Source: Actinospica robiniae DSM 44927
GTDB lineage: Bacteria; Actinomycetota; Actinomycetes; Streptomycetales; Catenulisporaceae
Assembly: GCF_000504285.1 (NCBI RefSeq)
Contig: NZ_KI632511.1
Location: 7,918,154 to 7,982,153 of the forward strand
DNA length: 64,000 bases
Reading direction: 5' to 3'
Below, piece by piece: positions 3,938 through 5,478 of this stretch. The position numbers and the translations under genes were made by a program. The first letter of the stretch is position 1. The number at the start of each line of letters is the position of its first letter. The notes below the pieces were generated by a model. That model worked only from the letters and a program-made list of their open reading frames with translations, did not search any database and was not told the DNA's origin.

Positions 3938-4531
3938 GTCGGTGAGGGTTGCGCGCTGGTTCGGATCGAGGTGGGGGAGGGTTTCTTCGAAGTCTGCCTG
4001 GTCTTTTGGGCGCACCTGCTTGGACTTGAAGAGCAGCACGAACTCCGGTGCCAGGTAAGGGATTCCGTCCGCGCTGTGGCGGATGACGGCGTCGTACGGC
4101 AGCCGAATCGTCGGGTCGTGGCGGCAGATCCATGCGTCGCCGTCGTGCGGCTCGCGGAACACGTCGAGGAGGTAGTCGTCGGTTCGCGGGTCGCGTAGCC
4201 AGGTCTGGTGCGTGGCGGCGATGACCTCCGGTGCGGCGCCGCGCCAGAGCCTGCCGCTGCTGACGGCGTCGAAGGCGTAGCCGTCGAATCGCGCGCGGAT
4301 CTCGGCGAAGCGGTTCGCCGGGACGGCGATCTCGAGGTCCCCGTGCTTCCTCGTCTGCTTGCCGCGGAACAGATCCAGCGCCCAGCCCGCGGCCACGTAC
4401 CAAGGCACTGCGACCTCGGCCAGCAGGCGCGCCACCTGGCTCGGAGTCCAGTGATGCGCCCAATTTCCGTCGAGGGCTGCGATCTCCTCAGCGGACAGCC
4501 GCACGCCGCCTTCGAGCTCTGCCTCGCTCAC
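3890..4531 (-). CDS. Nucleotidyltransferase, aminoglycoside 2''-adenylyltransferase-like
   Basis: 213 residues resembling the ANT(2'')/AadB-type nucleotidyltransferase fold: a Gly-Trp-Ala-Leu-Asp-Leu stretch (about residues 47-52), then KHGDLEIAV (about 61-69) in the place of the catalytic acidic pair, then YLLDVFREP and LPYDAVI. Known relatives transfer AMP to aminoglycosides, but many chromosomal members have no proven resistance role. The Asp-x-Glu in the active-site region differs from the usual Asp-x-Asp. Convergent with the Nudix gene and overlapping it by 48 bases. The permuted tRNA-like sequence lies just upstream on the same strand. Confidence 0.7.
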   Translation of the reverse strand: MSEAELEGGVRLSAEEIAALDGNWAHHWTPSQVARLLAEVAVPWYVAAGWALDLFRGKQTRKHGDLEIAVPANRFAEIRARFDGYAFDAVSSGRLWRGAAPEVIAATHQTWLRDPRTDDYLLDVFREPHDGDAWICRHDPTIRLPYDAVIRHSADGIPYLAPEFVLLFKSKQVRPKDQADFEETLPHLDPNQRATLTDLLARVHPGHAWLDRL

Positions 4532-4610
4532 GTCACCAGTCTTTTTCAGTCGGGCGGGGCGGGGCTAGTCCCCGGGGTGGGTTGGCGGATATGGGTATGG
4601 ACACCGCTAA

Positions 4611-4686
4611 GCTGCTCTGCCAGTTGAGCTACGAGGCCTGACGGCCTCGACGGGACTCGAATCCGCAACCCGCCGATTAAGAGTCG
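4611..4686 (-). tRNA. Circularly permuted tRNA-Lys(CUU)-like sequence
   Basis: Read on the minus strand, the 3' part of a tRNA (4686 to 4643: anticodon loop CTCTTAA, anticodon stem TCGGC, variable loop, T arm with TTCGAGT, acceptor CGAGGCC) comes first. A 4-base linker (GTCA) follows, then the 5' part (4638 to 4611: acceptor GGCCTCG, TA, D arm GCTC-AACTGGCA-GAGC, A26, GC). Joined in the normal order the pieces are 28 + 44 = 72 nt with no gap, a perfect 7-bp acceptor stem and a perfect 5-bp anticodon stem (GCCGA/TCGGC). The junction falls between positions 28 and 29. One defect is an A53-C61 mismatch in the T stem. No CCA is encoded. It could be a working permuted gene or a relic of a tandem tRNA pair. 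Confidence 0.65.
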
Positions 4687-4773
4687 ATAAGCGATGGCCT
4701 TCGACCCGCCAGCACCCTCCCCGGGGGCTCGTTGCCGCAACCTTAGGGCCCTGAGTTCGAGCCTGCCAGCGAT

Positions 4774-5478
4774 TTATTGCCGCGGCTGCGGCAGGTAGGG
4801 CGCGATGGCGTGGGCGAGCAGCGGGATCGGCATCGACTGCAGCCAGATCTCGCCCGGACCGGTCAGCGCGACGAGGTGGAAGCCGTTGTCCCCGAACAGG
4901 ATGTTGCGCACGCCCTTGAACCGGGTGATCTGGAAGCTCACCGTCTCCTGGAACAGGCCCACGTGGCCCGGGTGCACCAGCAGCGTCTGGCCCGGCGCCA
5001 GCTGGTAGGTGGTCACCTCGCCGGACAGCTCGATCCAGGCCTCGCCGTTGCCCTGCAGCTTCTGCAGCAGGAAGCCCTCGCCGCCCCACAGACCCGCGCC
5101 GAGGCCGGCCACCGGCGCCGCCGAGGCGTTCACGCCCGGGGTGCCGCACAGAAAGCCGTGCCGGTGCACCATCATCCCGGCGCCCGGCCCGATGCGCACC
5201 GGCAGGATCTGGCCGGGCGCCTTCGTGGCGAACGCGACGATTCCGCCGCCCCCGCCCTGGTTCAGGTACTGGGTCTGGAAGAAGCTGCCGCCGCCGAGGG
5301 CCCGCTTGACCCCGGCCAGGAAGCCGCCGCCTCCGCCCATTCCGTTGCCGGTGGTCTGCGAGACCGCGATGTTGGGCGACATCCACGACAGTTCGCCGTG
5401 TGTGGAGATGACCGACTCGCCCTGGTTGAGGGCGATCTCGAGGACGGGCAGCGTGGTGCCCTTCACAGTGGCCTGCAT
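4774..5478 (-). CDS. AIM24 family protein
   Basis: 234 residues matching the AIM24 (TIM24-like) family of beta-rich proteins: an N-terminal strand block, Gly-rich segments (residues about 46-56 and 74-80), HRHGFLCGTPGV in the middle and the repeated pattern GQTLLVHPGHVGLF near 170. Members are widespread in actinobacteria and often sit near stress or membrane genes; the biochemical role is not settled. The Gly-rich loops here are longer than in many homologues. The gene stands alone, transcribed toward the permuted tRNA-like region. The start is the ATG giving the family N-terminus. Confidence 0.8.
   Translation of the reverse strand: MQATVKGTTLPVLEIALNQGESVISTHGELSWMSPNIAVSQTTGNGMGGGGGFLAGVKRALGGGSFFQTQYLNQGGGGGIVAFATKAPGQILPVRIGPGAGMMVHRHGFLCGTPGVNASAAPVAGLGAGLWGGEGFLLQKLQGNGEAWIELSGEVTTYQLAPGQTLLVHPGHVGLFQETVSFQITRFKGVRNILFGDNGFHLVALTGPGEIWLQSMPIPLLAHAIAPYLPQPRQ

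What the first reader, a model, noticed from the sequence alone, without database searches (positions are those of the whole stretch)
4611..4686. Circularly permuted tRNA-Lys(CUU) in a bacterium
The 3' part precedes the 5' part with only GTCA between. Rejoined, the parts are exactly 28 and 44 nt, total 72, with a perfect 7-bp acceptor stem, canonical D arm and a perfect 5-bp anticodon stem formed across the junction. Chance alone would not give both. Permuted tRNA genes are known from some algae and archaea; I know of no established bacterial case. The A53-C61 mismatch and the lack of a known bacterial splicing route argue for caution. TTA occurs at both break points.
Basis: partly seen in the sequence, partly recalled or inferred. 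Interest (0 to 1): 0.85.

Follow-up and report, generated by a model that had tools for sequence, protein, structure and literature searches.

The report
Orphan Y RNA resembling permuted tRNA
What looked like a transfer-RNA gene written in the wrong order is most likely the tRNA-imitating part of a Y RNA, a small RNA that partners the ring-shaped Ro60 protein; it belongs to a broad group in actinobacteria and phages whose members often imitate the whole tRNA, anticodon loop included.

Summary
In detail: minus strand 4686..4611 reads 44 nt of a tRNA's 3' part, GTCA, then its first 28 nt. A long 5'/3' stem encloses the unit (4726..4687 with 4610..4570). Homologues with the same permuted order occur in phages and relatives, mostly just upstream of a Ro60 gene: a Ro-like gene in 72 of 89 viral loci, TROVE within 5 kb for 66 of 71 full-length matches in relatives. 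That is the setting of Y RNAs. This genome has one Ro60 gene with two Y RNAs beside it; the window copy is 4.56 Mb away and shares 21 of 26 leader bases with one of them. Two intact tRNA-Lys(CUU) genes exist; no splicing endonuclease was found. Unusual: 82 of 102 viral units carry a perfect, covarying anticodon stem, with 23 anticodons, absent from Rfam's YrlA consensus. Whether that variant is in print I could not check. Against: Rfam's score is below cut-off and not specific, and congeners without detected Ro60 carry another permuted tRNA-like pair.

The parts
4570..4726 (-). Whole inferred Y RNA (about 157 nt); true transcript ends unknown
   Evidence: Leader and trailer form a long closing stem, -50.6 kcal/mol as a duplex, against a best of -39.1 (this leader with other trailers) and -36.1 (other leaders with this trailer)
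4687..4726 (-). 5' strand of the presumed Ro-binding module, with GGCGGGUCGAAGG and ending in GCUUAU
   Evidence: 21 of 26 bases identical to the leader of the rsr-linked Y2 in L053; the helix next to the tRNA module is CAUCGCU/AGCGGUG
4570..4610 (-). 3' strand of the presumed Ro-binding module
   Evidence: Pairs with the leader; AUAUCCGC shared with Y2
4611..4686 (-). tRNA-like effector module: circularly permuted cloverleaf
   Evidence: Rfam RF02553 YrlA 37 bits over 4608-4674, below the cut-off of 69; R1 91 bits (the window was one of its 52 training rows); leave-window-out nhmmer E 1.1e-17
4674..4686 (-). Anticodon-like hairpin, loop CUCUUAA (CUU)
   Evidence: same loop in 5 of the 25 fully armed copies in relatives
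4611..4612 (-). Positions 27-28 (GC), pairing with 42-43 at 4672-4673 across the break
   Evidence: This helix is intact in 101 of 102 viral units and shows changes on both sides in 37 cellular copies
4650..4666 (-). T arm, with the A53-C61 mismatch
4632..4649 (-). Acceptor-like hairpin, 7 bp closed by GTCA
   Evidence: in homologues UUCG (18), GAAA (11) and GCAA (10) are the commonest loops of 102
4614..4629 (-). D arm with GG in the loop

Best explanation
It is a bacterial Y RNA of the tRNA-mimic (YrlA-like) type. Shown here: a tRNA-like module in circularly permuted order, an acceptor hairpin closed by a short loop, a long 5'/3' stem, and linkage of most of its homologues to Ro60 genes. Inferred from work on YrlA and Rsr that I read at second hand: the 5'/3' stem binds this genome's Ro60 orthologue (Rsr, G000:C1 near 3.362-3.364 Mb) while the tRNA-like module docks an effector such as the exonuclease PNPase and is modified by tRNA enzymes, so the RNA tethers or gates Rsr for decay of structured RNA. 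It is not cut and rejoined into a tRNA. This copy is an orphan, apart from the two Y RNAs directly upstream of rsr and from a further armless pair at 2.64 Mb, and carries the complete anticodon hairpin that Rfam's YrlA consensus lacks.
For: The permuted unit is conserved in phages SM23 and GMA2; 102 distinct viral units, 10 from named phages and 92 from viral contigs. A Ro-like gene lies on the held DNA in 72 of 89 viral loci with a unit, on the same strand for all 74 units scored, downstream of the unit for 65. 66 of 71 full-length matches in relatives are within 5 kb upstream of TROVE on the same strand, against 0 of 30 partial matches. All 59 genomes with those 71 matches have TROVE, which 80 of the 147 searched have. 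Own genome: one TROVE + vWA_Ro60 gene with two Y RNAs upstream, one sharing 21 of 26 leader bases with the window copy. Closing stem. Rfam YrlA is a sub-cut-off match.
Against: Rfam's YrlA score (37 of 69 bits) is below the cut-off, and sub-cut-off YrlA matches also ring in 7 of 14 control genomes, so that match is weak by itself; Y1 (34.8) and phage SM23 (37.7) also miss the cut-off. Y2's R1 score (38.3) is no better than that of the ordinary tRNA-Val/Gly pair in the window (38.4); Y2 rests on its place and leader. The two congeners have neither TROVE nor vWA_Ro60 yet carry another permuted tRNA-like pair, as this genome does at 2.64 Mb, with no Ro-like gene in the fetched DNA around it, so such RNAs can occur away from Ro60. 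No Ro gene lies in the window and no sigma-70-type promoter was found. A53-C61 is broken only here. Free folding prefers another structure (-77.2 against -67.5 kcal/mol with the cloverleaf enforced). No RNA or binding data.
Confidence: 0.88

Rival explanations
1. A true circularly permuted tRNA-Lys(CUU) gene whose transcript is circularised at 28/29 and opened at the acceptor end.
For: Complete cloverleaf with canonical anticodon loop; permuted tRNA genes with intervening sequences of 1 to 74 bp exist in algae and archaea (passages of PMC3978253).
Against: No tRNA_int_endo gene (the control rings in 4 archaea); two intact tRNA-Lys(CUU) genes; Ro60 linkage of homologues; acceptor hairpins often ending in UUCG or GNRA tetraloops; long leader/trailer stem.
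Confidence: 0.03
2. A chance or degenerate arrangement: abutting halves of two tandem tRNA genes, or att-site scars of integrative elements.
For: The genome holds a tRNA-Lys 3'-half remnant 76 kb from an intact copy, like an integration scar, and neighbouring ordinary tRNA genes do match model R1, up to 56.6 bits over its full length (L044:4-129).
Against: The same order, break point and leader recur in phages and relatives with compensatory pair changes across the break; the full-length matches that I took score 63.5 bits or more, and 66 of 71 lie near TROVE against 0 of 30 partial ones.
Confidence: 0.01
3. A Y RNA relic that no longer works, left by a phage or by rearrangement of the rsr locus.
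For: Orphan position, A53-C61 mismatch, no promoter match; absent between the same flanking genes in congener G002.
Against: All other stems are intact, the leader matches that of the genome's own Y2, and the congeners without it also lack detected Ro60.
Confidence: 0.2

Closest known systems
YrlA Y RNA (Rfam RF02553; Salmonella YrlA, PDB 6CU1)
   Same: 5'/3' stem plus tRNA-like module with T arm, closed acceptor hairpin and D arm in circularly permuted order; Salmonella yrlA lies in an operon with rsr (passage)
   Different: Rfam's consensus structure has only 3 nt where this family has a 3-bp, 7-nt anticodon hairpin; the window copy is 4.56 Mb from rsr
Y RNAs upstream of rsr in relatives of the same order
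   Same: Same module order and linkage; 25 of 37 high-scoring copies have the complete anticodon hairpin, 5 of them with loop CUCUUAA
   Different: Next to rsr in 66 of 71 cases; the armed copy here is not
Phage Y RNAs beside 'Ro-like RNA binding protein' genes (e.g. FuzzBuster, Sixama, Forza, Magritte, Cashline)
   Same: Permuted unit with leader and trailer
   Different: Phage-encoded; other anticodons
Circularly permuted tRNA genes of algae and Thermofilum pendens
   Same: 3' part precedes 5' part
   Different: Those use bulge-helix-bulge splicing to make tRNA (passages of PMC3978253); no endonuclease was found here

Membership tests
Bacterial Y RNA (Ro60/Rsr partner) | Ro60 (TROVE) gene in the genome | tested here: met
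   G000:C1:3363231, TROVE + vWA_Ro60
Bacterial Y RNA (Ro60/Rsr partner) | Long stem pairing the 5' and 3' ends, with a Ro-binding element | tested here: met
   Stem. Element GUCGAAGG shared with rsr-linked Y2; that GNCGAAN0-1G is the bacterial Ro-binding motif is recalled, from no call
Bacterial Y RNA (Ro60/Rsr partner) | Family members lie beside Ro60 genes (usual, not strictly defining) | tested here: met
   66 of 71 full-length matches in relatives and 72 of 89 viral loci; not the window copy itself, nor the pair at 2.64 Mb
Bacterial Y RNA (Ro60/Rsr partner) | Binds Rsr and an effector | not testable with these tools
   No binding data
Rfam RF02553 YrlA as modelled | Score at or above the gathering cut-off (69 bits) | tested here: not met
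   37 bits; Y1 34.8 and SM23 37.7 also miss it; sub-cut-off matches ring in 7 of 14 controls. Not filed under RF02553
Rfam RF02553 YrlA as modelled | T arm, closed acceptor hairpin, D arm in that order, inside a common stem | tested here: met
   Alignment
Circularly permuted tRNA gene | 3' part before 5' part of a complete cloverleaf | tested here: met
   with the A53-C61 mismatch
Circularly permuted tRNA gene | Bulge-helix-bulge at the junction | tested here: not met
   By eye from the fold: leader and trailer pair with each other next to a three-way junction with 2-3 nt linkers; no two bulges around a 4-bp helix. No motif program was run
Circularly permuted tRNA gene | tRNA-splicing endonuclease in the cell | tested here: not met
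   PF01974 not found in the own genome; rings in the 4 archaeal controls
Circularly permuted tRNA gene | Yields a mature tRNA | not testable with these tools
   No RNA data

The most novel reading that the evidence does not exclude
Actinobacterial and phage Y RNAs form a widespread class of complete, permuted tRNA decoys. Their anticodon loops keep the tRNA rules (U33, purine 37, A38, U36 with A37, G36 mostly with G37) while 34-36 diversify, as if each baited a particular anticodon nuclease or anticodon-modifying enzyme. Because the loop lies in the strand that joins the Ro-binding stem to the effector module, its cleavage could act as a tripwire that remodels the Ro particle during phage attack or stress.
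Probability: 0.2. Interest if true: 0.8.

Novelty: new variant of a known kind. Interest (0 to 1): 0.5.

Why it matters
It removes a candidate for the first bacterial permuted tRNA gene and explains such units: they look like Y RNAs that tRNA finders miss or mislabel as ordinary tRNAs and that fall under Rfam's cut-off. It also exposes a clean test: why would a Ro60-bound RNA keep a perfect anticodon loop of changing identity? [quoted passage not shown] RNAs with real anticodon loops make that idea directly testable.

Tried and rejected
Rejected: a permuted tRNA gene and tandem or att-site tRNA fragments (see rivals). A permuted group I intron was considered and set aside because leader and trailer are only about 40 nt each; not tested with a model. 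A ribozyme in the flanks: no ribozyme family was among the 5 matches for window 4500-4850 at E up to 10. Own-genome att scar: real, but a different sequence. Plasmids: no match for the 300-base region; for the 157-base RNA, partial matches at E up to 1 in 17 records, none covering 80%. A regex reading of 30 cellular loci failed on 20 and was replaced by the model alignment.

Searches show a further permuted tRNA-like pair at G000:C1 near 2.64 Mb and in both congeners, so this is now told and the confidence lowered from 0.90 to 0.88. The leader identity is 21 of 26, not 20.

Limits: the 52 rows of A2 were chosen by me (51 for intact anticodon and 27-28/42-43 stems, plus the window), so the 100% there is by construction; the fixed-register figures are 82 of 102 and 101 of 102, against partner-shuffled means of 14.4 and 33.8. 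To count as a unit a sequence had to match the GSTTAY / variable-region / T-arm pattern, show an acceptor hairpin closed by 3-12 nt and a D-arm pattern; the script also preferred loops near 4 nt, so 'closed' and loop length are partly built in. Sequences are related, not independent. The window was in the training set of R1. The cellular copies come from the loci returned for the top; R1 contains the anticodon stem, so they lean towards armed copies, and A3 is fitted to that structure. The iterated Ro profile was checked with Pfam on five of its loci, all positive, besides the genome's own Ro; it also found Ro in 17 of the 31 viral loci where my script saw no unit. In one search, 71 full-length and 30 partial matches were copied by hand from the cut-off list; the partial ones were not all taken. 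Of the other R1 matches, many overlap or lie between ordinary tRNA genes (and the annotations); they were not gone through one by one, and L213 was not resolved.

Full report
WHAT IS THERE. On the minus strand, 4686..4611 reads CGACTCTTAATCG-GC-GGGTT-T arm-CGAGGCC-GTCA-GGCCTCG-TA-D arm-A-GC: the 3' 44 nt of a tRNA, four bases, then its first 28 nt. The acceptor stem is 7 bp, the anticodon stem is 3 + 2 bp across the break, and A53-C61 is mismatched. ARAGORN and Rfam at gathering cut-offs report only tRNA-Val and tRNA-Gly near 40 kb.

The bases on either side pair with each other: 4726..4687 with 4610..4570, -50.6 kcal/mol as a duplex. Across 100 leader/trailer pairs (the window plus 99 viral units) the mean is -30.1 against -19.0 for swapped partners, and 47 of 100 own pairs are more stable than the 5% most stable swapped ones. 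The ends of such a transcript would be locked together beside the anticodon stem. Folded freely, the region prefers another structure (-77.2 against -67.5 kcal/mol with the cloverleaf enforced), so the cloverleaf rests on comparison, not on energy.

IDENTITY. blastn against phages found the unit in Microbacterium phage SM23 and Gordonia phage GMA2; queries with those two units found more. I opened 12 phage regions. Six show a gene annotated 'Ro-like RNA binding protein' (FuzzBuster, prophiGD43A-5, Sixama, Forza, Magritte, Cashline). GMA2's unannotated neighbour is TROVE + vWA_Ro60 by Pfam. SM23's neighbour, annotated 'RNA-binding protein', matches my Ro profile in two successive frames. Myrna, Phabba, Big4 and Pumpernickel show neither annotation nor profile match within 1.5 kb. 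Rfam's YrlA (Y RNA-like) matches the window at 37 bits: E 9.7e-7 in a 351-base search, 6.5e-6 for the whole genome, below its 69-bit cut-off. Sub-cut-off YrlA matches also occur in 7 of 14 control genomes, so this match is only a pointer.

VIRAL SURVEY. With stricter unit rules and the named phages, 102 distinct units remained, 10 from named phages and 92 from viral contigs. A Ro profile started from the genome's own Ro found a Ro-like gene on the held DNA of 72 of 89 viral loci with a unit, always on the same strand (74 of 74 units scored), downstream of the unit in 65 and upstream in 9. It also found Ro in 17 of the 31 viral loci where my script saw no unit.

CELLULAR SURVEY. The model R1 was searched in 147 relatives and TROVE in the same 147 (present in 80). 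All 147 have some R1 match at E up to 0.001; neighbouring ordinary tRNA genes score too (up to 56.6 bits over the full model at L044:4-129). The 71 full-length matches that I copied from the printed list score 63.5 bits or more; 66 lie within 5 kb upstream of TROVE on the same strand, and of 30 partial matches none does. All 59 genomes with those 71 matches have TROVE. The five exceptions are the window copy and single matches in G078, G010, G013 and G050; the G050 one lies at the end of its contig.

THIS GENOME. It has one TROVE + vWA_Ro60 gene. Directly upstream are two Y RNAs: Y1, L053:360-477 (R1 64.3 bits), and Y2, L053:515-632 (38.3 bits, no more than the ordinary tRNA-Val/Gly pair of the window, 38.4). 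Y2 is called from its place and from its leader, which shares 21 of 26 bases with the window copy, including GCGGGTCGAAGGC and GCTTAT. The window copy is 4.56 Mb from rsr, with no Ro-like gene in the window. It lies between an AIM24 gene and a gene with a weak adenylyltransferase match. In congener G002 these two genes are neighbours with almost no gap (by eye) and no R1 match; G001 has no R1 match near AIM24.

A RESULT AGAINST A SIMPLE STORY. ARAGORN calls no tRNA there. By eye they lack the 7-nt anticodon hairpin. My Ro profile finds nothing in the 12-14 kb fetched around them, and the congeners have neither TROVE nor vWA_Ro60, though their assemblies are in 420 and 940 pieces. So permuted tRNA-like RNAs can persist where no Ro60 is detected: a divergent Ro, another partner, or a missing contig would explain it. 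For the window copy, the shared leader with rsr-linked Y2 and the linkage of its own family keep the Y RNA reading ahead.

WHY NOT A tRNA GENE. Two tRNA-Lys(CUU) genes of different sequence are intact. No tRNA-splicing endonuclease was found, while the control rings in four archaea. The commonest acceptor loops among 102 units are UUCG (18), GAAA (11) and GCAA (10), which suits permanent hairpins; that the hairpin is closed at all was a condition of the count. A short intervening sequence alone would not exclude a permuted tRNA: T. pendens has one of 1 nt (PMC3978253, passages).

THE UNUSUAL PART. Rfam's YrlA consensus has 3 nt where these RNAs have a hairpin (structure line). Of 102 viral units, 82 have a perfect 3-bp anticodon stem in a fixed register, against a partner-shuffled mean of 14.4 and maximum of 26; the 27-28/42-43 helix is intact in 101, against 33.8 and 50. 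In the 82: U33 in 78, a purine at 37 in 81, A38 in 77, and 23 different anticodons. U36 goes with A37 in 52 of 52 and G36 with G37 in 18 of 21; U36 is commoner than in ordinary tRNAs of the same set of loci, 52 of 82 against 103 of 285. These sequences are related, so no p-value is given. In 37 copies from 29 loci of relatives, not in the training set but picked by a model that contains the stem, 25 have the full hairpin with a 7-nt loop (CUGAUAA 8, CUCUUAA 5, CUGUUAA 3, CUGUCAA 3, CUGCUAA 2, CUCAUAA 2, two others once each); of eight loci with two copies, seven pair a full hairpin with an incomplete one. In this genome the rsr-linked copies lack the canonical hairpin and the armed CUU copy is the orphan. 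That the orphan is a relocated or separately acquired armed member is inference.

MECHANISM. Shown: architecture, covariation, linkage. From the literature, as passages: the YrlA basal stem binds Rsr, the tRNA-like domain binds PNPase, and DusA and TruB modify it (PMC8394870); the D. radiodurans Y RNA tethers Rsr to PNPase (PMC7790460); 6CU1 superposes on tRNAs by circular permutation (PMC11472068); YrlA candidates in mycobacteria and in one Mycolicibacterium prophage (PMC9569102; PMC8190616), and Ro60-like proteins in mycobacteriophages (PMC12363180). Inferred: the window RNA does the same with this genome's Rsr.

LITERATURE LIMITS. The primary Y RNA papers (Chen 2014, Wang 2018, Sim and Wolin 2018) are not held; Sim 2020 was not tried. 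From memory, Chen 2014 reports Y RNAs in more than 250 bacterial and phage species with a tRNA-like domain. My searches for permuted tRNA with phage, Streptomyces or Actinobacteria, and for Y RNA or YrlA with anticodon or permuted terms, listed no paper whose title or abstract start describes anticodon-armed Y RNAs; that is weak evidence, since the core papers were not searched.

VERDICT. Observation confirmed; permuted tRNA gene rejected; most likely a Y RNA of a full-cloverleaf variant.

Noticed in passing
G000:C1 near 2639950-2640250 (L228, L231); G001:C166:7146-7402 (L219, L221); G002:C154:11970-12202 (L215, L222): A tandem pair of permuted tRNA-like units without anticodon hairpin, conserved in three congeners, sub-cut-off YrlA matches, no Ro-like gene in the fetched flanks; two of the genomes have no detected Ro60.
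   Followed up: partly
G000:C1:6463391-6539665 (outside the window; L002, L003): A tRNA-Lys(CUU) 3'-half remnant 76 kb from an intact tRNA-Lys(CUU), with identity starting at the anticodon region: probably an element integrated at tRNA-Lys.
   Followed up: partly
L041:3001-3067, L044:1498-1569, L046:1476-1554, L049:1491-1558, L051:1458-1534: Phage records annotate an ordinary tRNA over the Y-RNA leader and 3' part (SM23 tRNA-Asn, Myrna tRNA-Asp, GD43A-5 tRNA-Thr, Big4 tRNA-Ser, Magritte tRNA-Arg).
   Followed up: partly
L046:1491-1930, L052:1320-1580, L051:1183-1587: Some phage loci hold two or three R1 matches in a row, apparently several Y RNAs near one Ro gene.
   Followed up: no
L041:3184-4875: SM23's Ro-like gene appears split over two successive frames, annotated as 'RNA-binding protein' and 'hypothetical protein'.
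   Followed up: no
L042:3282-3338: A Pistol ribozyme match (56.8 bits) in the GMA2 tRNA array, just after a tRNA-Trp and near the Y RNA.
   Followed up: no
L042:2561-2972: A tmRNA match (94.6 bits) upstream of the GMA2 Y RNA, where the record annotates a hypothetical protein.
   Followed up: no
window:3890-4531 (-): Gene beside the Y RNA with a weak aminoglycoside-2''-adenylyltransferase match (PF10706, E 9.1e-8); function not inferred.
   Followed up: no
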